DNA from: a virus
Virus record (IMG/VR): IMGVR_UViG_3300027793_000052
Span: 186,001 to 250,000 of that record
Direction: 5' to 3' (one strand)
Length of the DNA stretch: 64,000 bases
Shown: positions 20,343-51,358 of the stretch, piece by piece
Layout: every line of letters starts with the position of its first letter
Position numbering within the stretch: the stretch's first letter is position 1
Notes under the pieces: model-generated
What the model was told of the DNA's origin: nothing
Database searches by the model: none
Seen by the model: the letters and a program-made list of their open reading frames with translations, nothing else
Translations under genes and position numbers: made by a program

Positions 20343-21113
20343 ATGAATAAAGGTATATACAAAATTACAAACCTAAAAAACGATAAAGTTTATATTGGTC
20401 AATCAGAAAATCTTAATAACAGAGAGTGGAACCATTTTTACTGGTTGGGCAGGGGTGAGCATCATAATGAACATCTTCAAAAATCCTACAATAAATACGG
20501 TAGGGAAAGTTTTATTTTTGAAGTAATTGAATACACCGATGATTTAGATAATCGTGAGTTACATTGGATTAATGAATGTGGTGGGGTTAATTCTGAATTA
20601 AACTATAATTTAAAAGATCCTACATCCAAAGAATGGTCAGATTATGTTAGGGTTAAACAAAGTAAAAAAATGTTAGGTGAGAATAACCCTAATTTCGGTA
20701 ATAAATGGACCGATGAACAAAAAGAAATGTTATCTAAAAGAAGAAAAGGTTTAACTTTAGAAGAAAGAATTGGTGTTGAAAAGGCAAAATTAGCTAAACA
20801 AAAAATGTCAAAATCACAAACCGGACGAAAACATCCAAATGATGTTAAAGAAAAAATTAGGCAAGCCAATGTGGGTGAAAATAATCCAGCGTATGGTATG
20901 GGTGATAGGCAGAGAGGTGATAAAAACCCAATGTATGGTAAACCAAGCAGTAAACGAAAACCTATACAACAATTCACTAAAGAAGGTGTTTTCATTAAAG
21001 AATATGAATTCTTATCACAAGTAATGGACAATGGATTTAATGCTAGTAACGTTTGTACTGTAGCTAACGGTAGGTTAAAATCAACTGGTGGTTTTATTTG
21101 GAGGTATAAATAA
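20343..21113 (+). CDS. GIY-YIG homing endonuclease with NUMOD motifs
   Basis: 256 residues. The catalytic domain is at the N-terminus: GIY at 4-6, YIG at 17-19, Arg27, and a Glu in 'RESFIFEVIEY'. NUMOD3-type DNA-binding repeats follow: 'GENNPNFGNKW', 'GENNPAYGMG', 'GDKNPMYGKPSS'. The C-terminus, with KPIQQFTKEGVFIKEYEF and 'GGFIWRYK', is a NUMOD1-like helix-turn-helix. It cuts DNA at a homing site and promotes its own spread. It is free-standing between two fibre genes, just after a terminator and without a Shine-Dalgarno sequence. Expression may rely on read-through or on the hairpin being part of translational control, as known for T4 homing endonucleases. Confidence 0.92.
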   Translation: MNKGIYKITNLKNDKVYIGQSENLNNREWNHFYWLGRGEHHNEHLQKSYNKYGRESFIFEVIEYTDDLDNRELHWINECGGVNSELNYNLKDPTSKEWSDYVRVKQSKKMLGENNPNFGNKWTDEQKEMLSKRRKGLTLEERIGVEKAKLAKQKMSKSQTGRKHPNDVKEKIRQANVGENNPAYGMGDRQRGDKNPMYGKPSSKRKPIQQFTKEGVFIKEYEFLSQVMDNGFNASNVCTVANGRLKSTGGFIWRYK

Positions 21114-33979: not shown

Positions 33980-36745
33980 ATGGCTTCACAAAAAGTATTA
34001 GTATCACCAGGTGTCTTTACATCAGAAAAAGATTTAACCTTTGTGGCACAACAAGTAGGTGTGACTACATTAGGTTTAGTTGGTGAGACAACAAAAGGTC
34101 CGGCTTTTGAACCTATATTCATTGCTAACTACGATGAATTTTTAACAATTTTTGGTGGTTTAAATCCTGAAAAATTTGGGGGTTCAAACCCAATACCAAA
34201 ATATGAATTACCTTACATAGCTAAGAGTTATTTAACCGAATCTAATCAATTGTTTGTGACAAGAGTATTAGGTTTAAACGGTTATGATGCTGGTGATGCT
34301 TGGGTTATTACGGCAGATGCTAACTATGATCCTTCAACAATTACCACTGTTTCAACAAGTGCTTTTACCGCAACATTTACAGGTGGTACATATACATCAA
34401 TTAGTGATATTAATGTTAATTATCTTAACTCACTAGGTTTATTACCAAATCCAACTACTAATGTAACAACAGAAAGTGTACCAGGTGTAACAACAGCATA
34501 TCCTGAAGGAGTTGTATTTACTAAAGTTGGTTCATCTTTTACAGGGGTATCAGCAACAATTATACAAACTTCTTATGATAGTAACGCTTTTACAGGTACA
34601 ACTTCAGGTACAGTAACAACTTATACAGCTACACAATATACCGAATATGAAGGTTTAGTATTAGCAGTATTAAGATCTAGAGGTAACTATTCTACAGATG
34701 CATTTACTTGGTCTACCGTTCAAGATCCTAACGGTGTTAAAATTGGTCTAACAGATTTAACAGACCCATTAGCACAATTCACCTTATCAGCATCTTCTGT
34801 TGGTTTCAGTGCGACATCTGTTTATAACGTATCATTAGATAAAACTAATAAAAATTATATTACTGGTGTATTAGGTGTTGATTGTTACGATAAGAATAGT
34901 AGAATTTTTGTTGAAGAAATTTATACTAACATGTTACAAGATTTAATTGATAACAATTACATCTTAGGTATTAATGACACTTTAACCCATGTTAATAATA
35001 TAGATAACTACAAACAACAATACCAAACTCCTGAAACTCCATGGGTTGTATCAGAATTACGTGGTAATGAAGTTTTCAAATTATTTAAATTTATTTCAAT
35101 ATCTGACGGTAGTTCAGCAAATAAAGAAATTAAAATCTCTATACAAAACATTAAACCTGACACTAAAGAGTTTGATATTATTGTTAGACAATGGGATGAT
35201 ACTGATGCTAGACCTTCTATTTTAGAAAGTTTCCCTAAATGTAATATGGATCCTTCTTCAAACAATTTCGTAGCAAGAAGAATTGGTACTGCTGACGGTG
35301 AAAATGTTCTTAACAGTAGATTTATCATGTTGGTTATGAATCCTGACGCTCCAATAGACGCTTTCACAGCAGGTTTTGAAGGATATCGTGTGAGAGATTA
35401 TGGTACAGCAACAGCACCATTTATTGATTACAAAACCTTTTACGATCCTGAAAACGAAAGAATAAGAAAAGTATACTTAGGTATTACGGATACAAAAGGA
35501 ATTGACCAAGATTTATTTGATTGGAAAGGTTTAACTTCAAACGATACTTACTGGACAGCAACAACTAAAGGTTTCCACATGGATTCTGGAGCTACTGTGG
35601 CAGGTAACTTTGATTGTGGTCTTTATGAATTCCGTGATGATGCTGGTATCGAAGGTACTGATTATGAAACTTTAGCGTCTAGAAAATTCACATTTGTACC
35701 TTATTGGGGTTATGATGGTTGGGATTGTTATCGTAAATCTAGAACTAATACTGATAAATATCGTGTAGGTAAAGCAGGTTTTACGGCAGGTTTAGCCGCA
35801 GGACAATTTGAACAATTAGGCCCACAAGATGGTACTTCTGACTTGTACGCTTACTGGAATGGTTATAAAACATTCGCAAATCCTGAAGCTGTTAATATTA
35901 ACGTATTTGCAACACCTGGTATTGATTACGCTAACAACGGTTACTTAGTGGCTGAAGTTATTGACATGGTTGAAGAACAAAGAGCTGATTCAGTTTATAT
36001 TTTAAGTTCACCGGATAATTCTTATACCGAAACAGATAACGTAACTGAAAGTTTAGGATTTAATTCAATAACAGTAGATACGGCTGACGCACTTATTAGT
36101 TTACTTGAAGGGGCTGACATTGATTCTAACTATACAGCCACTTATTGGCCATGGATACAAGAAAGAGATTCCGAAAACACTGTTAACATTTGGTTACCTC
36201 CAACATTAGAAGTTGTTAGAAATATCGCCTTAACCGATAACGTGGCCTTCCCATGGTACGCAGTTGCTGGTTATACTCGTGGTTTAACAAACGCTATCCA
36301 AGCTCGTGTTAAATTAACAGAAGACGATAGAGATACTTTATATGAAGGTCGTGTTAATCCAATGGCAACTTTCTCCGATGTGGGTGTTGTTATTTGGGGT
36401 AATAAAAATTTACAAGTTAAGGATTCCGTTCTTGATAGATTAAACATCAGAAGATTGTTATTACAAGCTCGTAAGTTGATTACAGCGGTTGGTGTTAGAT
36501 TGTTATTCGAACAAAATGACCAAATTGTTAGAAATCAATTCTTGAACTTGGTTAACCCAATCTTAGATAACATCAGAAAAGAAAGAGGTTTAGCTGACTT
36601 TAGAGTTCAATTATCTAATGACCCTGAAGAAATAGATAGAAACGAAATGAGAGGTAAGATTTTCTTAAAACCAATACCTACATTAGAATACATCTACATT
36701 GAGTTTAACGTAACTCCTACTGGAGCTTCATTCGACAATATCTAA
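33980..36745 (+). CDS. Tail sheath protein (T4 gp18-like)
   Basis: 921 residues, contractile tail sheath. N-terminus VLVSPGVFTSEKDLTFVAQQ is the typical start of a gp18-like sheath protein, then 'TLGLVGETTKGPAFEPIFI' and 'ELPYIAKSYLTESNQLFVTR'. The C-terminal domain, 'IRNQFLNLVNPILDNIRKER' and 'LKPIPTLEYIYIEFNVTP', is the conserved sheath end that forms the extended network. It is about 260 residues longer than T4 gp18 (659), suggesting extra insertion domains in the middle, about residues 120-500, on the outside of the tail. ATG follows an A-rich leader. The terminator at 36767-36794 ends the transcript before a homing endonuclease. Confidence 0.95.
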   Translation: MASQKVLVSPGVFTSEKDLTFVAQQVGVTTLGLVGETTKGPAFEPIFIANYDEFLTIFGGLNPEKFGGSNPIPKYELPYIAKSYLTESNQLFVTRVLGLNGYDAGDAWVITADANYDPSTITTVSTSAFTATFTGGTYTSISDINVNYLNSLGLLPNPTTNVTTESVPGVTTAYPEGVVFTKVGSSFTGVSATIIQTSYDSNAFTGTTSGTVTTYTATQYTEYEGLVLAVLRSRGNYSTDAFTWSTVQDPNGVKIGLTDLTDPLAQFTLSASSVGFSATSVYNVSLDKTNKNYITGVLGVDCYDKNSRIFVEEIYTNMLQDLIDNNYILGINDTLTHVNNIDNYKQQYQTPETPWVVSELRGNEVFKLFKFISISDGSSANKEIKISIQNIKPDTKEFDIIVRQWDDTDARPSILESFPKCNMDPSSNNFVARRIGTADGENVLNSRFIMLVMNPDAPIDAFTAGFEGYRVRDYGTATAPFIDYKTFYDPENERIRKVYLGITDTKGIDQDLFDWKGLTSNDTYWTATTKGFHMDSGATVAGNFDCGLYEFRDDAGIEGTDYETLASRKFTFVPYWGYDGWDCYRKSRTNTDKYRVGKAGFTAGLAAGQFEQLGPQDGTSDLYAYWNGYKTFANPEAVNINVFATPGIDYANNGYLVAEVIDMVEEQRADSVYILSSPDNSYTETDNVTESLGFNSITVDTADALISLLEGADIDSNYTATYWPWIQERDSENTVNIWLPPTLEVVRNIALTDNVAFPWYAVAGYTRGLTNAIQARVKLTEDDRDTLYEGRVNPMATFSDVGVVIWGNKNLQVKDSVLDRLNIRRLLLQARKLITAVGVRLLFEQNDQIVRNQFLNLVNPILDNIRKERGLADFRVQLSNDPEEIDRNEMRGKIFLKPIPTLEYIYIEFNVTPTGASFDNI

Positions 36746-36860: not shown

Positions 36861-38615
36861 ATGAAAATAGAATTAATTTGTCAGTGTTGTAATAAACCCT
36901 TTGAAACAGAATTTAAGTTTAGGGATAAAAAGTTTTGTTCAAGAAACTGTTATTTTCAAAATGCTCGTCAAGGCAAAACAAAAATAGGTAGATCCAAAGA
37001 TGAAACAATAAGAGAAACTAGAGAATGTAAGGTTTGTGGTAAAGAATTCGAAGTGAAGAAAAAACAAAACAAACAAATGTGTTCTGACGAATGTAGGGTA
37101 AAATGGGGTAATAGAGATGATGTAAAACAAAAAAGATTAGATACCACTAAAAAAACGGTACAAGAAAAGTATGGTGTTGATCATATTTGGCAAGTTAAAG
37201 AGATACACCAAAAAACCATGGAAAATAGAGATATGGGGGTAGTTTCCACTAAGGTAAGTGAATCTTTAAAATCCAAAACTGATGAAGAAAAGAAAGATAT
37301 TTTAGAAAAAAGAAAAATAACAAAAGAAAAAATATATGGAAACCCATTTTATAACAACCCAAATAAGATATCTAATTCTTTAAAAGTTAGTTATCTTGTT
37401 AATGGTGATACTATAAATGAAAAAAGGGAAAAAACGATGTTAACCAAATACGGTGTTACATCTTCATTACAGTTAGATATCACTAGAGTTAAATTGGAGG
37501 AGATTAGGGATGAGGTTACAAAGAAGGGTGTTGAAGTCAGGAAGGCAAAGTATATAGAGTATTTAAAATCTAGATTAGAAGATAATAACCTATGTATATT
37601 ATCTGAGTATGATAAAAATAAGGAAGGTACCAAAAGTATAGAATATGAGTTTAAATGTTTAAAGTGCGATAATATTTTTACATCAACTGTGTTAGGTAGT
37701 GGTAAAATACCTATATGTAGAAAATGTAACCCAACATTTACAGAAACACATATTAGTAATAAAATAAAAGAGGTTTTAGATTTATATTCTATTAATTATA
37801 TACAGAATGATAGGAGGTTGATAAACCCATATGAGTTAGATTTTTATTTACCTGAACATAATTTAGCATTCGAAATTAATGGTAATTATTATCATTCTGA
37901 AATTGGTGGTGGTAAAGATAAATTTTATCATATAGATAAAACAAAATTAGCTAACCATAAAAACGTTAAAGTAATTCAACTATATGAGGATGAAATTATC
38001 CAAAACTTTGAAATAGTTAAAAGTAAGATTTTACACTTTATCGGAAAACAGGAAAATAAGATATACGCAAGAAAGTGTGTGTTAAAATTAATAGACAATA
38101 AAACTTCAAGAAAGTTTTTAGATGAAAACCATTTACAAGGTAATAGTAAATCATCTGTTAAATTAGGATTGTACCATCAAGATAAGTTGGTTTCTGTTAT
38201 GACATTCTCTAAGGGTAGGGTTGTAACATCGAATAGTGGTTGGGAGTTAATTAGGTTTTGTAATAAAAAATATACTTCTGTTATTGGTTCATTCAATAAA
38301 CTATTAAATTATTTTACCAAAAACTATGAGTTTGATGAGTTGATAACTTATTGTGATATTAGATGGTCGGGTATTAAACCAGAAGATACTGTATACTACA
38401 AAAATAATCTAAAGTTTGTTGGATTTACACCACCTTCCTATTGGTATATGGACAGGAAAAATTATAATTATAGACTACATAGATTTAACTTTAGGAAATC
38501 CAAATTAGTATCTGAAGGTTTTGATGTTAATAAAACTGAATGGGATATAATGAAAGAACGTGGTTTTGATAGAATATGGGATTGTGGTACAATGAAATTT
38601 ATTTATAATAAATAA
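36861..38615 (+). CDS. Homing endonuclease, zinc-finger plus PD-(D/E)xK-type core
   Basis: 584 residues. Two N-terminal zinc-binding C-x2-C/C-x3-C modules: CQCC...CSRNC and CKVC...CSDEC. A middle region rich in Lys is likely DNA binding ('KKTVQEKYGVDHIWQ', a repeat typical of such endonucleases). The putative nuclease core, 'YELDFYLPEHNLAFEINGNY', has the D-(x)n-E-x-N arrangement of PD-(D/E)xK or Vsr-like nucleases. The C-terminal part (from about 395) shares clear similarity with the endonuclease at 46306, including 'WELIRFCNKK', 'FDELITYCDIRW' and 'RIWDCGTMKF'. It lies downstream of the sheath gene, between a terminator and gene 38619. A mobile homing gene; target site not identified. Confidence 0.85.
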   Translation: MKIELICQCCNKPFETEFKFRDKKFCSRNCYFQNARQGKTKIGRSKDETIRETRECKVCGKEFEVKKKQNKQMCSDECRVKWGNRDDVKQKRLDTTKKTVQEKYGVDHIWQVKEIHQKTMENRDMGVVSTKVSESLKSKTDEEKKDILEKRKITKEKIYGNPFYNNPNKISNSLKVSYLVNGDTINEKREKTMLTKYGVTSSLQLDITRVKLEEIRDEVTKKGVEVRKAKYIEYLKSRLEDNNLCILSEYDKNKEGTKSIEYEFKCLKCDNIFTSTVLGSGKIPICRKCNPTFTETHISNKIKEVLDLYSINYIQNDRRLINPYELDFYLPEHNLAFEINGNYYHSEIGGGKDKFYHIDKTKLANHKNVKVIQLYEDEIIQNFEIVKSKILHFIGKQENKIYARKCVLKLIDNKTSRKFLDENHLQGNSKSSVKLGLYHQDKLVSVMTFSKGRVVTSNSGWELIRFCNKKYTSVIGSFNKLLNYFTKNYEFDELITYCDIRWSGIKPEDTVYYKNNLKFVGFTPPSYWYMDRKNYNYRLHRFNFRKSKLVSEGFDVNKTEWDIMKERGFDRIWDCGTMKFIYNK

Positions 38616-40491: not shown

Positions 40492-40524
40492 AAAAAAGGG
40501 TGATTATATAATCACCCTTTTTTT
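40492..40524. terminator. Bidirectional terminator shared by convergent genes
   Basis: A perfect palindrome GGGTGATTATATAATCACCC at 40498-40517 flanked by A6 and T7. It serves the plus-strand gene ending at 40472 and the minus-strand gene ending at 40512. The stop codon and last codons of the minus-strand gene are inside the hairpin. Confidence 0.88.
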
Positions 40525-40802
40525 ATGTCATCATCTGTTAAATCGTTAAAATCGAAAAACTCATCGGTCTTTCCGTTATTCAATTGGTCTACCCAGTAAC
40601 ATTTTTCTAAATAAGATTTTATAGAATCTATTAAAATATGACAAACTATGATTAGTCTGATTAAATCAAACCAAAAACCTAAAGAAACAAAAAAAACAGT
40701 TAAAAACATTAATAAAGATACTACAAGTTTAATATGGAAATCTTTATTCCAAAAGTTTATAGCGAATTCTATTTTTTCTGTTTTATTGAATATTGGTTTC
40801 AT
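40512..40802 (-). CDS. Small two-TM membrane protein
   Basis: 96 residues, not recognised. Two adjacent hydrophobic segments, 'IKLVVSLLMFLTVFFVSLGF' and 'FDLIRLIIVCHILIDSI', with an acidic C-terminus (FFDFNDLTDDDIKKG). The coding sequence ends in the terminator hairpin. Upstream is a good host-type promoter, 40825-40856. It is a minus-strand gene in a plus-strand late region and is likely expressed early. Possible roles are membrane remodelling, superinfection exclusion or an antiholin; no motif supports one. Confidence 0.6.
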   Translation of the reverse strand: MKPIFNKTEKIEFAINFWNKDFHIKLVVSLLMFLTVFFVSLGFWFDLIRLIIVCHILIDSIKSYLEKCYWVDQLNNGKTDEFFDFNDLTDDDIKKG

Positions 40803-40870: not shown

Positions 40871-40896
40871 TAAAAATGGGGGTATTTAACCCCCAT
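40871..40896 (-). terminator. Terminator of the SPFH operon
   Basis: Stem ATGGGGG/CCCCCAT with loop of 7, followed on the minus strand by TTTTTATTG. It lies 4 bases after the stop of the SPFH gene. Confidence 0.85.
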
Positions 40897-40900
40897 GTTA

Positions 40901-42142
40901 CTATTTACTAGTTTTCATATCTAAATTAATCTCTTTGGCTGTTTTTGCCATCATTAATTGGATTAGTGACGCCGCCTCTGTATTATGAGAACTACCATTC
41001 CCACCCATAACTGTAGTAGGAACCCAATTACTATTACTCATAGCTGCCGCGTATTCTTTATTAACTTTTACCCAAGCATCTAATTTTTGTTCTAATGCTC
41101 CATTAGCCTGAATAACTGCTCTTTTCTTATACGCCTCAGCGTCGGCTAGAATTTTAACCTTTGACGCTTCTTCGGTTGCCGCCATTTTAGCTATACGTTG
41201 TTGTTCCAAATCCTGTTTTGCTAACTCCACCTTAGTTTGAGCAGCTACTACCTGTTTGGTCTGTTCTTGTTTTTGAGTGTACTCAATCTCTACAAGTTTC
41301 TTCTTACCCTCAGCCTCAGCCGTTAAAGCCTGTTGTTGTGCTGTCATTAACCTCTGTTTAGATACGGAGGCCGCTGTTGACGCGTCAATTTTCTTAGCTA
41401 ACATATCATCAACTCGTTTCTCATAATCCACATCGGTAATAGAAGCGTCAGCCACTGTAATACCATATTCTTTAATACTAGACACTTTACGTTTAACTTG
41501 ACCATTCTTATCAGTTTGTACTACTGTTTGATATATACGTTTTTTGGCTTTTTCTAATGAATCATATTCAACATATTCCTTTGTTTGTAAAATAAAAGTG
41601 CCACTCTTTAATTGGTCAATATAATCTTGTGACATCTGTGCTCTACCACCAGAATAATGCATTTCAGAACTCATTAACTGAGCCGCTGATTGTAAACATT
41701 CTTTGGTGTATGGTGACAGTCTTTTAGTTACCAATGATTGTGGTGTCCTATGTGTATTATGTATTAATATCATATCCTTTTCATCATTTGGTAATATGTA
41801 TTGGGCTATACCAGATACATCGGCAGTAGTAGCATCCCCACCAAAACGAACACCTATTTTACCTATTTCAATACCATTATCTTCTAACTCTAGATTAGCC
41901 TCTTGTTTAGAATATGATACTGAAATCTGATTTGGCCAAGAAGTTTTCTTAGCGAATAACCCAGCGTAATAAACACCAGATTCAAATTGGACGAATTGTT
42001 TACCACTCATTTGTTGAACCACTGTTCTTTCACCAGCGTCATTCCAAGCAAAAGGGTTAACAAATAAAAACATAATAATAGCTAATACAGATACTACACC
42101 TGTTACAACCCATTTAATGGGGAATTTTTGATTTTCAAACAT
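40901..42142 (-). CDS. SPFH/band 7 (stomatin/prohibitin-like) membrane protein
   Basis: 413 residues. N-terminal TM helix (WVVTGVVSVLAIIMFLFV, about 11-30) followed by an SPFH-type beta-rich domain ('GDATTADVSGIAQYILPND', 'TDVDYEKRVDDMLAKKIDAS'), then a long Ala/Gln/Lys-rich coiled coil (about 265-370: QRLMTAQQQALTAEAEGKKK onwards, with 'ADAEAYKKRAVIQANGALEQ'). This is the SPFH plan of stomatins, prohibitins and HflK/C, which form membrane rings and regulate proteases. The next upstream gene encodes a single-TM coiled-coil protein and the one before a ClpP protease; all three read as one operon ending in the terminator at 40871-40896. A phage SPFH ring close to ClpP suggests control of proteolysis at the membrane. 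Confidence 0.88.
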   Translation of the reverse strand: MFENQKFPIKWVVTGVVSVLAIIMFLFVNPFAWNDAGERTVVQQMSGKQFVQFESGVYYAGLFAKKTSWPNQISVSYSKQEANLELEDNGIEIGKIGVRFGGDATTADVSGIAQYILPNDEKDMILIHNTHRTPQSLVTKRLSPYTKECLQSAAQLMSSEMHYSGGRAQMSQDYIDQLKSGTFILQTKEYVEYDSLEKAKKRIYQTVVQTDKNGQVKRKVSSIKEYGITVADASITDVDYEKRVDDMLAKKIDASTAASVSKQRLMTAQQQALTAEAEGKKKLVEIEYTQKQEQTKQVVAAQTKVELAKQDLEQQRIAKMAATEEASKVKILADAEAYKKRAVIQANGALEQKLDAWVKVNKEYAAAMSNSNWVPTTVMGGNGSSHNTEAASLIQLMMAKTAKEINLDMKTSK

Positions 42143-42143
42143 G

Positions 42144-42419
42144 TTATTTTAGATTTTTGGTTTTTTCTTTGATTTGTTTTACTTTTTCTAACTCTTCCTT
42201 CCAATGTTGGAGGTCTTTTTCGGCACCTTCAATACCTTCAGAGGCGTTTATTTCTGCCCTTGTTATTTTCAATTTAATCACTTCGATTAAATGTTCAACC
42301 TCTTCGGAGGTGGTTTGTTTTTTATCGTTTTGTTTAAACGACTCCAATATTTTGAATCCTGCATATACTGTAACTGTTATGAGACCCAAAATTACAAAAA
42401 ATATTAATAGCCTGAACAT
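42144..42419 (-). CDS. Small single-TM coiled-coil protein
   Basis: 91 residues. N-terminal TM helix 'LLIFFVILGLITVTVYAGF' (4-22), then a helical, charged part (about 40-91) with heptad-like spacing ('VEHLIEVIKLKITRAEINA', 'WKEELEKVKQIKEKTKNLK'). It lies 1 base before the SPFH gene and 20 bases after the ClpP gene, so it is in the middle of a three-gene operon. It may link the SPFH ring or the membrane with the protease; this is inference from order and topology. I do not recognise the family. Confidence 0.65.
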   Translation of the reverse strand: MFRLLIFFVILGLITVTVYAGFKILESFKQNDKKQTTSEEVEHLIEVIKLKITRAEINASEGIEGAEKDLQHWKEELEKVKQIKEKTKNLK

Positions 42420-42439
42420 ATTTTTTTATTTTTTTTTAA

Positions 42440-43120
42440 TTATTTAAAAGGAACTACTTCATCTATAATACCGTAAGCTAAAGCCTCTTTAGATGATAAC
42501 CATAAGTCACGACTAGCATCCTCCATAACTTGTTTAGGGTCCTTACCACAATATTCACCCAATAATTCAAAAAGGGTTTCATTGATTTTTTCCCATTCTT
42601 TCATTGTAATACGTGCGTCTTGGATGTTACCCATAGCACCACCACTAGATTGGTGTAACATTGTTCTAGAAAACCTTAAAGAACTTCTCATCCCTTTGGT
42701 GCCAGCACCTAACAATACTGAACCCATAGATGCTGCCATACCTGTGTTAATGGTAGCTATTGGTGCCTTTGTTACGGACATTGTATCCACTATAGATAAA
42801 CCTGACTTAACAGAACCACCTGGACTATCAATATGCATAGTAATTCTTTTCTTAGAATCTTGTTGATCCAAGAAAAGTAGTTGTGCTTGTACAATAGTCG
42901 ACATTCTGTCATTAACAGGTCCTGCCACCCAAAGGATACGGTCCATCATCAATCTGTCGAATACCGAAATTACTGTAGCGTTCATTTGTCTTTCTTCCAC
43001 AACTGCGGGTGTCATACTACCCTGAACCATTGGTATTTGTGACATAAAGGATTGGTATGCATGTAATGTGTTGGAACCAATATATTGGTCTTTGATTGCA
43101 AATTTTTCAAATTCTGTCAT
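42440..43120 (-). CDS. clpP: ClpP-type serine protease (S14)
   Basis: 226 residues, close to the bacterial ClpP length. Motifs: MHIDSPGGSVKSGLSIVD (about 95-112), catalytic Ser131 in NTGMAASMGSVLL, His156 in RTMLHQSSGG, Asp205 in ASRDLWLSSKEALAYGIID. The triad and the oxyanion Gly-Gly are all present, so this looks active. ClpP forms a 14-mer barrel and normally needs a Clp ATPase; none is encoded nearby, so the host's ClpX/ClpA may be used. First gene of an operon with a single-TM coiled-coil protein and an SPFH protein. The promoter is host-type (43143-43174). It could serve as a maturation protease, but its minus-strand early-type promoter and partners suggest host-directed or membrane proteolysis. 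Confidence 0.9.
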   Translation of the reverse strand: MTEFEKFAIKDQYIGSNTLHAYQSFMSQIPMVQGSMTPAVVEERQMNATVISVFDRLMMDRILWVAGPVNDRMSTIVQAQLLFLDQQDSKKRITMHIDSPGGSVKSGLSIVDTMSVTKAPIATINTGMAASMGSVLLGAGTKGMRSSLRFSRTMLHQSSGGAMGNIQDARITMKEWEKINETLFELLGEYCGKDPKQVMEDASRDLWLSSKEALAYGIIDEVVPFK

Positions 43121-43142: not shown

Positions 43143-43174
43143 TAAAGATATTTATAATAAAATTAATTGTCAAA
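43143..43174 (-). promoter_or_regulatory. Host-type promoter TTTG-20-TATCTTTA for the ClpP operon
   Basis: On the minus strand TTTG (43174-43171) and TATCTTTA (43150-43143) are 20 bases apart; the last base of the -7 box differs from TAnnTTTG. ATG at 43120 lies 22 bases further. It overlaps the plus-strand ATATTTATA at 43148-43156. Confidence 0.45.
43148..43156 (+). promoter_or_regulatory. Candidate late motif ATATTTATA
   Basis: ATATTTATA 29 bases before ATG 43186, overlapping the -7 region of the opposing ClpP operon promoter, so the two could exclude each other. Confidence 0.45.
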
Positions 43175-43185
43175 AAAATATACAC

Positions 43186-45705
43186 ATGATTACAAAAGCT
43201 GAGTTTGAAAAAGCAATGGAAATGGACCGTCAACAAACAATAAAGGAGTTGATGGAGAACTGTGACCTATTATTAAAAGGTAACCGTATGTTAACTGAAA
43301 ATAGATTATCAGAATCGGAATATATGGTTCTAGAAGAAGGTCTTTGGGAAAAGGTTAAATATGGTTTGGCTAAATTAGGTCGTTACAAAGCAGGTGGTAA
43401 AATATTCGGTAAAGGTAAGATAGACCAAGAGGCTGGGGCTAAAATACAAGCTATATTAGATAAAAAAGGTAATGAGGTTATTAAAGCTTTAGATACTAAA
43501 ATTAAAGAAGAAAACCCTGAATTTCCTAACAACGAAAAAGGTGAACAATTCTTAAAAACCGTTATGGAAATAGCGGCAGTATATGATTCTATAGTAGCTT
43601 CCACTAAGAAAAAACCTAACGAAAAAGGATTTTTACCGGCAGATGCGGCCAATTCAGTTATAGCTGATTTAGCCGAATATGTACAAAAATTCTTAGATGT
43701 CGACTTAGCTGCCGCATATACAGTTATGGATTCTGAAGAAGAAAAAGTAGATAAAGAAAATGGTAATGAGGAACTTTTAACTGATGAAGTAGAGGATATA
43801 AATGAGGACGAGGCTGAAGATGTTAGAACACAATTACAATCTAAAGCCGGTAAAAAAACCTACGATACTAAAAGAATGGGTGGTGAAGGTTTGGCATCAA
43901 ATAAATTACCTTTAGTATTGGCTGGATTAGGTGGGGCTTTAGGAGCATTAGGTTGGTTAGCACAAACTGATTTCATTAAAGAAATTATCATTAAAATTTT
44001 TGGTGGTGATATCAATGTAACCGATACTGAAAAAATAACAGAAATAATTAATGGTGGTAATCCAGATTCTGAAGGTTTTGTTCATTGGGCAAGTAAACTA
44101 ATGGGTAAGGACCTTAAAACTGGTGCTGATATTTCAGAATTTGTTAACAAGTTTGGTGCTGAAGATGTTAGTCATATGTTTGATGGTAATGGTGCCGGTG
44201 ATTCAATGACACAAGTTAAACAACTCCAACAATTAGTTGGTGGTGAAAACGCTGGTAAAAGTGTAGGTGAGTTGTTTCAATCAGAAACTTTTGGTGATAT
44301 GAAACAAGGTAGAAACTTGTTTGGTGTGTCTAAGTCGGCTAGTTTTGTTTCTAAAACAATAACAACTGTTGTTAAGAAAACAGTTGTTAAAGGTGCTGGT
44401 ACAGTTATTGCGGCTAAAGTGGCGGCAATAGGTTCTGTTTTAGCCCCAATAGGTATCGCTTTAATAGGTACAGGTGCTTTAGTTAAACTTATGAGGATGA
44501 AAGGTTTAAAACAATCTAGAGCTAAAACACTTAACGATTTACTTCAATCATTACAACCTGTAGAAGCGGGTGAAGCTACAACAGTTCCAATATTACCGGA
44601 TCCTAAACCAAATCCAACGAAAGAAGGTGGTAACGGTAAGAACGATAAAGAAGGTTTATACAACGATTTATTAGGGTTTTTCAAATATACATATAACAAT
44701 AGAAAAATAGGTGGTGTGGAATCATCTGATGATGTCGAAAACACCAGTGATATTCAAGTTGGTAAAGAATATTTCTATACTAATAAGAAAGGTGAAAAAA
44801 ATGTTGTTAAAGTTGTTTCACTATCTAACCAATATAAAGCTGGTGATGATAAAAAATTCGGTACTAATGATGATGAAAAATTAGATAGTATAGAACCTGG
44901 TACAGCTTTCGTTGTGTTTAAAAAACCTAATAACACGTATGGTAACGAACCTGCCAGGGCTGTAAATAAAAAACAATTATCAACAGAAAACATAATGAGT
45001 AACAAAGATGTCATTAACGAAGGTAAATTCATAAAAGACCCACAAGTTATAAAAATATTAGAAAAGAATAAAGGTATAGATAAAAATAAGTTGGCCTTTT
45101 TCGATAACTTCCTAAGAAGAGTAGAGGTTATTAGAAACAAGGTTAATAAGATGGGTAATACTGGTGATAATGTTCTAGACAAGTTTATACAAAAATTAAA
45201 ATCTAACCCACTAATGACAAAAGATTTTGTTAAAACATTTAGTGTTGATCCTAACAACCAACAGAACGTTGAGGCAATGGGTGATTTCATTAATGATATT
45301 ATTGAAATTGTTTATAAAGGTAGATTTAGAGGTGCTAAAATAGAGGATGTAGCTAAAGGTGTCACAACCTTCAATAAAGAAGGTGGTGCCGTTGAGAAAA
45401 TGGGTAAACTAGGTGGTGGTAATATTAATAAGGTTGGTGTGGAGGAATCTTATTTAGTCGAAAGAAAGGGTAAGAAAGCTAAAGCTAAAAGTACCTTTAA
45501 AAACCATATAATAAGTTTCATCACAGACTTAATGGGAATGTTCCAATATATGACAAAACTTAAAAAACAAGGTAAATTATCATCTGACGGTGGTAAAAAA
45601 GAAAGTAAACCTAAACAAGAACCTAAACCACAACAAGAATCTAAAATTTTTACTAATAAAGTCTTACTAGAAGAAATAAGTAGAATTAAAAAATTAATGA
45701 AATAA
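43186..45705 (+). CDS. Large internal-virion-type protein with hydrophobic segments
   Basis: 839 residues from ATG 43186 (MITKAEFEKAMEMD); a TTG 30 codons upstream is not favoured because it would lie within the promoter region. Function not recognised. Features: helical N-terminus with repeated 'LMENCDLLLKGN'-type elements, an acidic stretch (EVEDINEDEAEDVR), a hydrophobic Gly/Ala segment 'LVLAGLGGALGALGWLAQ', a second one 'AAIGSVLAPIGIALIGTGAL', a beta-rich part, and a C-terminal motif 'LLEEISRIKKLMK'. The element GLYNDLLGFFKYTYNN is shared with the gene at 52473. It lies right before the tail tube gene. A tail-lumen or ejected virion protein fits the hydrophobic segments; this is inference. 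Confidence 0.6.
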   Translation: MITKAEFEKAMEMDRQQTIKELMENCDLLLKGNRMLTENRLSESEYMVLEEGLWEKVKYGLAKLGRYKAGGKIFGKGKIDQEAGAKIQAILDKKGNEVIKALDTKIKEENPEFPNNEKGEQFLKTVMEIAAVYDSIVASTKKKPNEKGFLPADAANSVIADLAEYVQKFLDVDLAAAYTVMDSEEEKVDKENGNEELLTDEVEDINEDEAEDVRTQLQSKAGKKTYDTKRMGGEGLASNKLPLVLAGLGGALGALGWLAQTDFIKEIIIKIFGGDINVTDTEKITEIINGGNPDSEGFVHWASKLMGKDLKTGADISEFVNKFGAEDVSHMFDGNGAGDSMTQVKQLQQLVGGENAGKSVGELFQSETFGDMKQGRNLFGVSKSASFVSKTITTVVKKTVVKGAGTVIAAKVAAIGSVLAPIGIALIGTGALVKLMRMKGLKQSRAKTLNDLLQSLQPVEAGEATTVPILPDPKPNPTKEGGNGKNDKEGLYNDLLGFFKYTYNNRKIGGVESSDDVENTSDIQVGKEYFYTNKKGEKNVVKVVSLSNQYKAGDDKKFGTNDDEKLDSIEPGTAFVVFKKPNNTYGNEPARAVNKKQLSTENIMSNKDVINEGKFIKDPQVIKILEKNKGIDKNKLAFFDNFLRRVEVIRNKVNKMGNTGDNVLDKFIQKLKSNPLMTKDFVKTFSVDPNNQQNVEAMGDFINDIIEIVYKGRFRGAKIEDVAKGVTTFNKEGGAVEKMGKLGGGNINKVGVEESYLVERKGKKAKAKSTFKNHIISFITDLMGMFQYMTKLKKQGKLSSDGGKKESKPKQEPKPQQESKIFTNKVLLEEISRIKKLMK

Positions 45706-45762: not shown

Positions 45763-46251
45763 ATGGCAGATTTATTAATGAGAATGCCGGTTCCATACGA
45801 ACCAAAAAAACAAAATAGATTTATATTAAGATTCCCATCACCACTAGGTATTCAGGAATGGTTTGTTAAAGCAGCTTCAAGACCTAAATACACGTCACAA
45901 GAAACTGAAATTCAGTTCTTAAACACATCTACTTTTGTAACAGGTAGATTTACTTGGGAAACTATAAGTGTAACATTCCGTGACCCTATTGGTCCATCGG
46001 CGGCACAAGCTTTAATGGAATGGGTTCGTCTTCATTCTGAATCCGTAACTGGTAGACAAGGATACGCTGCTGGATACAAGAAAGATGTTGAATTAGAATT
46101 ACTAGATCCAACAGGTGTTGTTATAGAAAAATGGATTTTACAAGGTACAATGTTAAATGATGTAGATTTCGGTTCTTTGGCCTATGATGCTAATGATATA
46201 GCTGAAATTACAGCAACTTTACGTTTCGATAGAGCTATACACGTATTCTAA
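45763..46251 (+). CDS. Tail tube protein (T4 gp19-like)
   Basis: 162 residues, same size as T4 gp19 (163). Features of the tube family: 'YEPKKQNRFILRFPSPLG', 'WFVKAASRPKYTSQETEI', 'FTWETISVTFRDPIGPSAAQ', 'LELLDPTGVVIEKW', and the closing 'ANDIAEITATLRFDRAIHVF'. Hexameric rings of this protein make the inner tail tube through which DNA passes. It lies downstream of a large internal-type protein and upstream of a homing endonuclease. Start at an A-rich leader with ATG 45763. Confidence 0.95.
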   Translation: MADLLMRMPVPYEPKKQNRFILRFPSPLGIQEWFVKAASRPKYTSQETEIQFLNTSTFVTGRFTWETISVTFRDPIGPSAAQALMEWVRLHSESVTGRQGYAAGYKKDVELELLDPTGVVIEKWILQGTMLNDVDFGSLAYDANDIAEITATLRFDRAIHVF

Positions 46252-46269
46252 AAATTATTTGTCATATAC

Positions 46270-46300
46270 TTGACAACCAAAATGAAAGTTCATATATTTG
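46270..46300 (+). promoter_or_regulatory. Host-type promoter TTG-20-TATATTTG before a homing endonuclease
   Basis: TTG (46270-46272, part of TTGACA) is 20 bases before TATATTTG (46293-46300), matching the Bacteroidota -33/-7 boxes. It also fits sigma-70 (TTGACA, 17 bases, TATATT). The ATG at 46306 is just 6 bases from the -7 box, so the transcript would be nearly or wholly leaderless. Confidence 0.5.
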
Positions 46301-46305
46301 TATAT

Positions 46306-47889
46306 ATGGACTTTTCTTTTTTTATAACAGACAATAAATCTGGTCATAAGACCAAAGAGTCGTGGTTTTCTAAAAACCACCCAAAGGAATATCAAGCGGT
46401 GATTGATTATTGTGGTAGTAAATTACCAACAGATTCTTCTTTCAAAGAGAAGGTTTGGGTTTATTTCAACGCACTAGATGGTAGACCTTGTTGTGAATCC
46501 TGTGGTTCAACGGTTAAATTTTCGGAAAGGTTCGATAGAGGTTACAATCAGTTTTGTTCGTTGGATTGTGCTAACAAGAGTGGTTTATTAATAGATAAAA
46601 TTAAAAAGTCCAACCTAGAAAACCACGGTGTTGAATTTTACACCCAACACAAAGATTTTGTTGGTAAGCAGAAAAAAACTAAATCAGTTAGATACGGTAA
46701 TGAAAACTATAATAACGTAGGAAAAATGTTATCCACCAAGTTGGATAAATATGGTAATACAAATTATAACAATTTTGACTTATATAAGAAGACGTGTTTA
46801 AATAAATACGGTGAAGATAATTTCTGTAAAACAAAACAATATAGGGATTTATTAAAGAATAAAATTAAGGAAAGATACCCTAATTTAAATATTAAAAATA
46901 TTTCAGAAGATTTATCGGAATTGGAGATTTTGTGTGACGATTGTCACACCGAATATAAGATATCCCAAAGTTTACTTAGAGAACGTGTTAAACACAAATA
47001 TGTTAATTGTACTAACTGTAATCCTGTTGGTATGTCCTTTTCTTCCTCTTATGAAGATGAGTTATCTAAGATATTAAATGAGTGGGGTGTGGCACATTTA
47101 AGACACACCAAAATACCTGGTACTAAGTTAGAATTAGATATTTTAATACCACAAATTAACCTCGCCATCGAATTCAATGGGTTATTTTGGCATAACGAAC
47201 TTTTTGTTAACACTGAGTATCATTTAAATAAGACGGAATTGTGTGATAAAAACGGAATGGATTTAATACATATATTTGAGGACGAGTGGTTGTATAAAAA
47301 AGATGTGGTACTATCTATAATAAAAAACAAATTAGGGTTGATTACCCAAAGGGTATATGCCAGAAATTGTAGGATTAAATTAGTAACAAGTGGTCAACAT
47401 AAAGATTTTTTAGAGGATAATCACATACAAGGTTCTGTCAACACAACAATCAAATTGGGTTTATTCTATGGTGACGAATTAGTTTCATTAATGACCTTTG
47501 GTAGACGAAATGGTATTGGTAAAACTATAGATTGGGAACTTATTAGATTTTGTAATAAAAAAGATACGATCGTTGTTGGTTCAGCATCTAAGTTATTTAA
47601 ATATTTTATAAAAAACTATGAACCTAAAAATGTTATCTCTTACTCTGATAGAAGGTGGTTTTCGGGTGAATTATATCAATTGTTAGGGTTTAAACCAACA
47701 ACACCATCTCAACCAAATTATTGGTACGTTAATAATACGATTAGATACCATAGATTAAATTTCAAGAAAAACGTTTTGGTTAAACAAGGGTTTGATAAAA
47801 ACAAATCTGAACGTGAAATAATGTTTGAACGTGGATATTACCGTATATATGATTGTGGTAATATAAGATGGGAATATTTTTCTGAATAG
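46306..47889 (+). CDS. Homing endonuclease, paralogue of the gene at 36861
   Basis: 527 residues counted from ATG 46306 (MDFSFFITDNK). An ATG at 46282 and a TTG at 46270 are alternatives, but both would fall within the proposed promoter. It has a zinc-finger-like CCESC...CSLDC module near the N-terminus, Lys-rich repeats with 'KYGNTNYNNF' and 'KYGEDNFCKT' spacing typical of phage homing enzymes, a nuclease-core segment 'LELDILIPQINLAIEFNGLF', and a C-terminal region parallel to 36861: 'WELIRFCNKK', 'NVISYSDRRW', 'YRIYDCGNIRWEY'. It inserts after the tail tube gene, as its paralogue inserts after the sheath gene. It promotes its own transfer; recognition site unknown. Confidence 0.82.
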   Translation: MDFSFFITDNKSGHKTKESWFSKNHPKEYQAVIDYCGSKLPTDSSFKEKVWVYFNALDGRPCCESCGSTVKFSERFDRGYNQFCSLDCANKSGLLIDKIKKSNLENHGVEFYTQHKDFVGKQKKTKSVRYGNENYNNVGKMLSTKLDKYGNTNYNNFDLYKKTCLNKYGEDNFCKTKQYRDLLKNKIKERYPNLNIKNISEDLSELEILCDDCHTEYKISQSLLRERVKHKYVNCTNCNPVGMSFSSSYEDELSKILNEWGVAHLRHTKIPGTKLELDILIPQINLAIEFNGLFWHNELFVNTEYHLNKTELCDKNGMDLIHIFEDEWLYKKDVVLSIIKNKLGLITQRVYARNCRIKLVTSGQHKDFLEDNHIQGSVNTTIKLGLFYGDELVSLMTFGRRNGIGKTIDWELIRFCNKKDTIVVGSASKLFKYFIKNYEPKNVISYSDRRWFSGELYQLLGFKPTTPSQPNYWYVNNTIRYHRLNFKKNVLVKQGFDKNKSEREIMFERGYYRIYDCGNIRWEYFSE

Positions 47890-50285: not shown

Positions 50286-50315
50286 AAAAAAAGGGACCGT
50301 TAAGTCCCCATTTTT
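50286..50315. terminator. Terminator between convergent genes
   Basis: Stem GGGAC/GTCCC with A7 before and ATTTTT after, so it can end both the plus gene (50284) and the minus gene (50314). The stem is short (5 pairs, more with G-U). Confidence 0.65.
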
Positions 50316-51306
50316 ACCAATCAAAATCGTATTTGGATTTATCATCATAATTACCACCGTTATAATAAGGATTTTTATTACTTCTATCTGATCCTAGAAA
50401 CTCTCCATTATTGAATAATAAATCAAAATCATCGTCATCATCTAAGTCATTAAAAAAATCACTTTTTTTTTCTTCATTTAATAAACCTCTATTGTTTGAG
50501 TTACTAAAAGAATAGGTTTTTTCTTGTTTACGATTTTCATATTTTTCTTCACCCAATTCAGATATTAATTTAAGACCTAATTCAAAACCGTTTTGGACAT
50601 CGTCGATAATAACATATTCATGGTCAGTATGATAACGATAATAGCCGGCCGCTAAGTTAAGACAAGCTATATCAAATTTCCCAACAATTTGCCAAGCGTC
50701 AGTGTAAGGGTGGTATGCCCAATCATCAATTCCAGCTTCTGTAATTAAACCCGTAACCTTGTTAGCGAATTCACTTTCTTGATTAAATAAGTAACGTCCC
50801 ATAAGTGTTAAACTCATGGAATTACCTTCAGGTGAGTCGTATTGAATACCATAACCAACATTCTTAAAGAATTCAGGGTCAGCGTACTTACTACCTTGAC
50901 ACCCTATTTCTTCAGATACAAAGAAAGCTGCCTTAACGTTTTCTAATGTGTCTAACATCTCTAAACATAGAAACACCCCACACTTGTCATCACCACCGAT
51001 ACCTGACGGTTGTTTGGTCTTACCATCAATACCTCTAAGTATTTGTTTACCGTCCTTAACTTCTTCAACCACTTTTAGGTTTAAGTTAACTCTGTGCACA
51101 GTATCAGTATGTGAAATAAAACATGGGTACCATTCAGCTTTACCTTTGGTTGCGTAAATATTACCGTGTGTGTCTGTATAATGTTCTATACCTTTTTCTG
51201 TTAGAACTTTCTGAAGATACTCAATCATTAACTTCTCATTTCTAGAATGAGTAGGTACTGATAGTACTTCTTTTAAACGATTGAGTTTTTCTTGTGTCAT
51301 TTTCAT
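50314..51306 (-). CDS. M20-type metallopeptidase (PepT-like)
   Basis: 330 residues. Zinc-binding residues of an M20-type aminopeptidase are visible: His66 and Asp68 in SHTDTVH, Asp106 in GIGGDDKCGV, the Glu132-Glu133 pair in VSEEIGCQGS, a candidate Asp157 in QYDSPEG, and His226 or His229 in YRYHTDHEYV. The central domain is shorter than in typical PepT (about 410), and the C-terminus is extended by an acidic tail (DLDDDDDFDLLF). Such enzymes release residues from short peptides; in a phage it could recycle peptide products or cleave a specific peptide. It has a host-type promoter and sits opposite to the late region, so it is probably early. Moderately sure of family; function in infection is open. 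Confidence 0.78.
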   Translation of the reverse strand: MKMTQEKLNRLKEVLSVPTHSRNEKLMIEYLQKVLTEKGIEHYTDTHGNIYATKGKAEWYPCFISHTDTVHRVNLNLKVVEEVKDGKQILRGIDGKTKQPSGIGGDDKCGVFLCLEMLDTLENVKAAFFVSEEIGCQGSKYADPEFFKNVGYGIQYDSPEGNSMSLTLMGRYLFNQESEFANKVTGLITEAGIDDWAYHPYTDAWQIVGKFDIACLNLAAGYYRYHTDHEYVIIDDVQNGFELGLKLISELGEEKYENRKQEKTYSFSNSNNRGLLNEEKKSDFFNDLDDDDDFDLLFNNGEFLGSDRSNKNPYYNGGNYDDKSKYDFDW

Positions 51307-51327: not shown

Positions 51328-51358
51328 CAAACTTACTAATTTAATCATTATTGGCAAA
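51328..51358 (-). promoter_or_regulatory. Host-type promoter TTTG-19-TAAGTTTG for the peptidase gene
   Basis: On the minus strand TTTG (51358-51355) and TAAGTTTG (51335-51328) are 19 bases apart, with TTTTGCC as at the promoter 49301-49331. ATG 51306 lies 21 bases further. Confidence 0.6.

What the first reader, a model, noticed from the sequence alone, without database searches (positions are those of the whole stretch)
40901..43120. Phage SPFH-coiled-coil-ClpP operon with a host-type promoter
Three minus-strand genes (ClpP with intact Ser131/His156/Asp205, a one-TM coiled-coil protein, an SPFH protein with TM and coiled coil) are packed with gaps of 20 and 1 bases, driven by a host-type promoter and closed by a strong terminator. 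In bacteria SPFH rings are paired with proteases (FtsH-HflKC; stomatin with NfeD-type ClpP-class proteases). A phage-encoded SPFH plus soluble-type ClpP plus membrane linker would be a membrane-tethered proteolysis module. Seen: motifs, order, promoter, terminator. Known: SPFH-protease pairing. Inferred: joint function.
Basis: partly seen in the sequence, partly recalled or inferred. Interest (0 to 1): 0.82.

Follow-up and report, generated by a model that had tools for sequence, protein, structure and literature searches.

The report
Phage ClpP with exchangeable membrane partners
A giant virus of Bacteroidota bacteria carries, on its own bacterial-style promoter inside its tail genes, a ClpP protease followed by a borrowed bacterial gene pair (a tiny membrane protein plus a ring-forming SPFH protein); comparison with relatives shows that the tiny protein and the SPFH protein truly belong together, while the protease is only an occasional neighbour.

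Summary

The three-gene "SPFH-ClpP module" reading is only partly right. (1) Companion + SPFH is the real unit. A small one-TM protein lies directly upstream of SPFH in 23 of 29 phage loci (background 9/220) and 28 of 30 Bacteroidota chromosomal loci, where it is a ~40-residue microprotein. The phage pair is closely related to this host pair (SPFH ~60% identical). (2) ClpP is a separate constant. It sits between tail-sheath and tail-tube genes in ~28 relatives; the slot behind it is empty or holds exchangeable cargo, at least one membrane protein or lipoprotein in all 13 filled lineages. SPFH occupies it in three lineages. (3) Seven complete SPFH phages lack ClpP, and ClpP relatives lack SPFH. 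(4) The phage encodes its own ClpC-type unfoldase, ClpP's expected partner, and a separate S77 prohead protease, so ClpP is not the capsid protease. (5) By fold the SPFH is nearest HflK/C.

Best reading: a moron-like cassette; ClpP serves a cytosolic phage proteolytic system and the pair acts at the inner membrane as an HflC-like scaffold. Direct tethering of ClpP is unproven.

The parts
42440..43120 (-). ClpP (S14) 226 aa, soluble, triad S131/H156/D205; constant gene of the tail-sheath/tail-tube site
   Evidence: PF00574 1.2e-57; PDB ClpP chains E~1e-46; synteny in relatives
42144..42419 (-). Companion ('linker') 91 aa: N-terminal TM (~4-22), then a charged helical tail predicted cytosolic
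   Evidence: hhalign to chromosomal microproteins P=82%, E=1.1e-5
40901..42142 (-). SPFH protein 413 aa: TM 9-27, SPFH domain ~31-240, long helix 242-369
   Evidence: PF01145, phrog_11908, AF2 model pLDDT 77, nearest solved fold HflK/C E=9e-10
43143..43174 (-). Host-type (Bacteroidota -33/-7) promoter of the cassette, TTTG-N20-TATCTTTA
   Evidence: 9/10 positions, 22 nt before ATG; conserved in the clade
40876..40896 (-). Intrinsic terminator after SPFH (8-bp stem, T-rich tail)
40512..40802 (-). orf96, two-TM protein (weak DUF3307 match); same cargo pool: its homologue lies behind ClpP in L018
40825..40856 (-). Exact-consensus host-type promoter of orf96 (TTTG-N20-TATATTTG)
33980..36745 (+). 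Tail sheath, one flank of the conserved site
   Evidence: phrog_23 E=2.7e-52
45763..46251 (+). Tail tube, other flank of the conserved site
   Evidence: phrog_4542 E=4.8e-25

Best explanation
A moron-like cassette inserted antisense in the tail module of a jumbo myovirus of Bacteroidota, transcribed from its own host-type promoter. Its constant first gene is a soluble, bacterial-type ClpP that most likely works in the cytosol with the phage's own ClpC-type AAA+ unfoldase. The slot behind ClpP carries exchangeable membrane cargo; here it is a host-type two-gene unit, a one-TM companion plus an HflC-like SPFH protein. The SPFH protein most likely forms a periplasm-facing ring or cage at the inner membrane; the companion sits in the same membrane with its tail in the cytosol and helps assemble or steer the ring. 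Most likely effect: remodelling of host inner-membrane quality control (FtsH-type proteolysis, membrane microdomains) during infection, co-expressed with but not obligately bound to ClpP. Shown: genes, operon signals, conserved pairing, independence of ClpP and SPFH, presence of a ClpC-type ATPase and of a separate prohead protease. Inferred: topology, ring formation, ClpC-ClpP partnership, effect on the host membrane.
For: Companion directly upstream of SPFH in 23/29 phage loci vs 9/220 background and 28/30 chromosomal loci; in crAss001 and T5-like vibriophages too. Chromosomal SPFHs of Cytophagales and kin are ~60% identical over nearly full length and fall within one clade with the phage ones. 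Fold nearest HflK/C. ClpC-type ATPase with Clp_N, UVR motif, AAA_2 and ClpB_D2-small in the same record, with VGY (VGF in relatives) in the place of the ClpP-docking loop. ATPase also in 9 of 12 related records, the three misses being partial contigs. S77 prohead protease present. ClpP constant, cargo variable. Host-type promoters 21-22 nt before all three antisense units of the tail module (ClpP 9/10, orf96 10/10, M42 peptidase 10/10) and scoring 9 before only one of about 30 plus-strand starts, a homing endonuclease.
Against: No expression or interaction data. The docking-pocket positions of these ClpPs are changed family-wide against E. coli (Y60T, Y62H, M92T, F112S), so productive docking of ClpC is uncertain. 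No phage FtsH, so FtsH action would need the host's. The SPFH profile finds no significant solved structure by sequence. The microprotein-companion homology rests on a short hydrophobic segment.
Confidence: 0.55

Rival explanations
1. One reading: SPFH ring, companion and ClpP form one membrane-tethered proteolytic complex, the companion's cytosolic tail holding ClpP under the SPFH ring.
For: Operon with tight gaps; SPFH lies behind ClpP in three ClpP lineages that are not sisters, one with an SPFH only ~23% identical, so the association probably arose more than once; filled slots always hold a membrane or lipoprotein gene; the companion's tail is predicted cytosolic.
Against: SPFH without ClpP, ClpP without SPFH; most companion-SPFH pairs lie elsewhere in phage genomes; ClpC is the more obvious ClpP partner.
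Confidence: 0.2
2. The slot is a moron/superinfection-exclusion hot spot: exchangeable small membrane proteins and lipoproteins alter the host envelope against competing phages, and ClpP is an unrelated resident gene.
For: Cargo turnover (9 label changes on the ClpP tree); lipoproteins and two-TM proteins typical of exclusion genes (general knowledge); own host-type promoter and terminator.
Against: No cargo type matches a known exclusion family well; SPFH proteins are not known exclusion factors (own knowledge); about half of the tail-site lineages carry ClpP alone.
Confidence: 0.2
3. ClpP is the prohead (capsid maturation) protease and the operon is a late structural unit.
For: PHROG head-maturation families are among the matches (phrog_94 4e-39); the gene lies in the structural region.
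Against: A T4 gp21-like S77 prohead protease is encoded in the same record; the ClpP-related head-maturation model NF045542 scores 77.9 against a cut-off of 120, well below bacterial ClpP models; the ClpP sits between tail genes and on the opposite strand.
Confidence: 0.05

Closest known systems
HflK/HflC (FtsH regulators) and related SPFH rings
   Same: N-terminal TM followed at once by an SPFH domain and a long helix; nearest solved folds
   Different: Single SPFH gene instead of an hflK-hflC pair; a one-TM companion instead; no phage FtsH
SPFH-NfeD operons, including SPFH5 with long NfeD carrying a ClpP-class domain (PMC2636767)
   Same: SPFH gene next to a small membrane protein and a ClpP-class protease
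   Different: Companion is a single-TM helical protein without an NfeD match; the protease is a separate, soluble, S14-type ClpP without TM
Bacteroidota chromosomal microprotein-SPFH pair (L130-L160)
   Same: Order, spacing of about -4 to +21 nt, SPFH ~60% identical
   Different: Chromosomal companion is 37-45 aa with a short tail; the window's phage version is 91 aa with a long helical tail; no ClpP nearby in the chromosomal loci
ClpC-ClpP (ClpCP) protease
   Same: Phage encodes both ClpP and a ClpC-type ATPase
   Different: Genes ~115 kb apart; ClpP docking-pocket positions changed
Jumbo-phage ClpP (PMC7824862) and Clp protease of bS21 Bacteroidetes phages (PMC9723584)
   Same: Phage-encoded ClpP; opposite-strand gene in a structural region; this record also has bS21
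   Different: Membrane cargo behind ClpP and SPFH pairing were not found described in the papers searched

Membership tests
ClpP (S14) family | ClpP fold family with Ser-His-Asp triad | tested here: met
ClpP (S14) family | Hydrophobic pocket for AAA+ IGF-type loops (positions 60, 62, 82, 90, 92, 112, 114, 189 of mature E. coli ClpP, recalled from memory) | tested here: inconclusive
   90 and 114 kept and 189 conservative (V/I); 82 is V here, Y in most relatives; 60, 62, 92 and 112 changed family-wide, mostly to T/H/T/S
ClpCP protease | ClpC-type partner with Clp_N, UVR motif, two AAA domains and ClpB_D2-small | tested here: met
   840-aa protein L124:2682-5204
ClpCP protease | ATP-dependent proteolysis by the assembled complex | not testable with these tools
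   needs biochemistry
Phage ClpP-related head maturation protease | NF045542 at or above its cut-off; sole prohead protease | tested here: not met
   77.9 bits vs cut-off 120; separate S77 protease present
SPFH superfamily | Band 7/SPFH domain | tested here: met
   PF01145 28.1 bits vs cut-off 23.6; fold search
HflK/HflC | Two paralogous SPFH genes and complex with FtsH | tested here: not met
   one SPFH gene found in the record, no phage FtsH; binding to host FtsH not testable here
NfeD-type SPFH partner / long NfeD | NfeD domain (three TM plus beta-barrel), long form fused to a ClpP domain | tested here: not met
   companion has one TM and no NfeD match; the ClpP's only NfeD match, NfeD1b_N, is 18.5 bits vs cut-off 40
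Moron-like insert | Opposite strand, own host-type promoter and terminator, variable content among relatives | tested here: met
Moron-like insert | Expression independent of the phage late programme | not testable with these tools
   needs transcriptomics

The most novel reading that the evidence does not exclude
The phage tethers a ClpP with an altered docking surface to the inner membrane through interchangeable membrane anchors (companion-SPFH, lipoprotein, two-TM proteins), making a swappable membrane-localised protease directed at envelope or incoming-phage proteins.
Probability: 0.13. Interest if true: 0.85.

Novelty: new variant of a known kind. Interest (0 to 1): 0.56.

Why it matters
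SPFH rings are ancient membrane organisers, and most bacterial ones have no known partner other than NfeD or FtsH. The comparison exposes a conserved one-TM microprotein of about 40 residues next to an SPFH gene in Bacteroidota chromosomes, short enough to be easily missed in annotation, and its longer version in unrelated phages. That gives a directly testable partner for a widespread SPFH family and shows phages repeatedly carrying it. The ClpP site shows a phage protease whose neighbours are membrane proteins exchanged over short evolutionary distances.

Tried and rejected
ClpP as prohead protease: rejected (S77 found). Lipoprotein cargo as a cut-down SPFH domain: suggested by a shared 'GER' motif, but profile comparison gave probability 0.8% and its AF2 model was unusable (pLDDT 43). 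Phage FtsH as SPFH partner: none found. The 12-sequence SPFH alignment was too diverse to scan with; closer subsets were used. Literature searches for a bacterial microprotein partner of SPFH found nothing relevant.

Full report
Where it is. The window is bases 186001-250000 of a 317,983-bp virus record, a myovirus with tail sheath, tail tube and T4-type baseplate genes in the window. Close relatives are uncultured contigs and, more distantly, 630-640 kb uncultured phages and Lak phages. The host is probably a Bacteroidota bacterium (inference from the SPFH relatives, the ClpP model PRK14514, recalled as a Bacteroidota form, and the promoters).

The observation. All three ORFs, the triad, the gaps, the promoter and the terminator check out, and the genes are under purifying selection. 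The promoter TTTG-N20-TATCTTTA is conserved upstream of ClpP in most tail-site relatives. The three antisense units of the tail module (ClpP cassette, orf96, an M42/M20-type peptidase) each have such an element 21-22 nt before the start codon (9, 10 and 10 of 10 positions). Among about 30 plus-strand starts only one, a homing endonuclease, scores 9; random 90-mers reach 9 or more in 2.4%.

ClpP is the constant. In about 28 tail-site lineages (clustered by ClpP identity) ClpP sits between sheath and tube genes, on the opposite strand. The slot behind it is empty in about half; in the 13 filled lineages it holds companion + SPFH, a ~150-aa lipoprotein, or small TM proteins. Every filled slot has at least one membrane or lipoprotein gene, the first gene in 12 of 13, against 40 of 140 small genes in the same loci (lineages are related, so this is not a clean probability; L020 was counted by its homology to the lipoprotein). 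On the ClpP tree cargo labels need nine changes. SPFH appears in three separate places, with two changes forced by well-supported branches; repeated gain is not separable from ancestral presence with replacement, except that L024's SPFH is only 23% identical to the window's while its ClpP is 81% identical.

Companion + SPFH is the real pair. In 23 of 29 phage SPFH loci a gene of 38-148 aa with one TM segment ends within -60 to +130 nt of the SPFH start (background 9 of 220 genes), and most further loci agree. Some of these loci are near-copies, and the five divergent proteobacterial phages (Slicko01, phiN3, MQM1, 1233, Milchi) lack it. A scan of genome contigs found 31 SPFH loci about 60% identical in Cytophagales and neighbours; 28 of 30 examined have a one-TM ORF at the same place, nearly all a 37-45 residue form (MIRLALAVGFLAVFGIVAYAVVLLLTNYF...). 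One (L155) carries a 101-aa companion on a 3.5-kb contig and may be phage DNA. Charged residues suggest companion tails in the cytosol and SPFH domains in the periplasm, as in HflK/C (inference).

Independence. Complete genomes of crAss001, pVp-1, Slicko01, phiN3, MQM1, 1233 and Milchi carry SPFH but no ClpP; LR756500, G003 and G008 carry both, not adjacent. ClpP-bearing relatives outside the window's own three-gene group, including the 634- and 642-kb genomes, lack SPFH (several are fragments). So neither requires the other.

ClpP's partner. The record encodes an 840-aa ClpC-type ATPase (Clp_N, AAA, UVR, AAA_2, ClpB_D2-small); 9 of 12 related records tested also have a ClpB_D2-small ATPase, the misses being partial contigs. 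Its loop reads VGY (VGF in relatives), the place of the ClpP-docking motif. Yet docking-pocket positions of phage ClpPs are changed across the family while the triad is invariant (pocket positions recalled from memory). The phage may have co-adapted both sides, or ClpP may dock something else; this is open. A T4 gp21-like S77 protease removes the capsid-protease reading.

Fold. The AF2 model of SPFH (pLDDT 77, pTM 0.56) has TM 9-27, an SPFH domain and a 128-residue helix. Nearest solved structures are HflK/C (7vhq, E=9e-10), then prohibitin, erlin, vault, flotillin and stomatin. By sequence alone no solved structure matches significantly.

Mechanism. Most likely the companion-SPFH pair builds an HflC-like membrane assembly that alters host inner-membrane quality control during infection, while ClpP serves a cytosolic ClpC-ClpP system; co-transcription sets common timing. 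Direct tethering is topologically possible only through the companion's tail and is a minority reading. Timing is unknown: in related Bacteroidetes phages an opposite-strand gene in the structural region, bS21, is transcribed late (PMC9723584), and this record also encodes bS21.

Known work. SPFH-NfeD operons, including long NfeD with a ClpP-class domain, are described (PMC2636767; PMC13086221); phage ClpP in jumbo phages is known (PMC7824862); SPFH genes in T4-like phages are listed (PMC1524935). The companion microprotein and the ClpP cargo slot were not found in the papers searched; many subscription papers were not available.

Noticed in passing
window 50314-51306 (-), promoter 51328-51358: M42/M20-type peptidase (phrog_4191 5e-42), a further antisense gene in the tail module with an exact host-type promoter; could trim ClpP products.
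   Followed up: partly
L124:2682-5204 (-), i.e. record 111681-114203: Phage ClpC-type Hsp100 ATPase of 840 aa, outside the window.
   Followed up: yes
L125:4057-4869 (+), i.e. record 138056-138868: T4 gp21-like S77 prohead protease.
   Followed up: yes
record 35249-35404 (-): Ribosomal protein bS21 homologue, linking this record to the bS21 Bacteroidetes phages of PMC9723584.
   Followed up: partly
window 36861-38615, 46270-47889, 20343-21113: Homing-endonuclease-like genes: the first and third match PHROG homing endonucleases, the second resembles the first by eye. The second has a host-type promoter 9/10.
   Followed up: partly
window 43186-45705 (+): 839-aa protein between ClpP and tail tube with hydrophobic stretches and no family match; related proteins flank ClpP in many relatives. 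Possibly an ejected membrane-active protein.
   Followed up: no
L130-L160: Microprotein of about 40 residues upstream of SPFH in Bacteroidota chromosomes, no significant match in the NCBIfam scan.
   Followed up: yes
L014:10973-12163: SPFH with an N-terminal part like the window's and a C-terminal part like L024's: looks like recombination within the coiled coil.
   Followed up: no
L116:7902-9175: SPFH reading frame split in two ORFs; possibly degraded or a sequencing error.
   Followed up: no
L125:85-1221: Glutamine-synthetase-like protein next to the prohead protease (recognised by eye, not searched).
   Followed up: no
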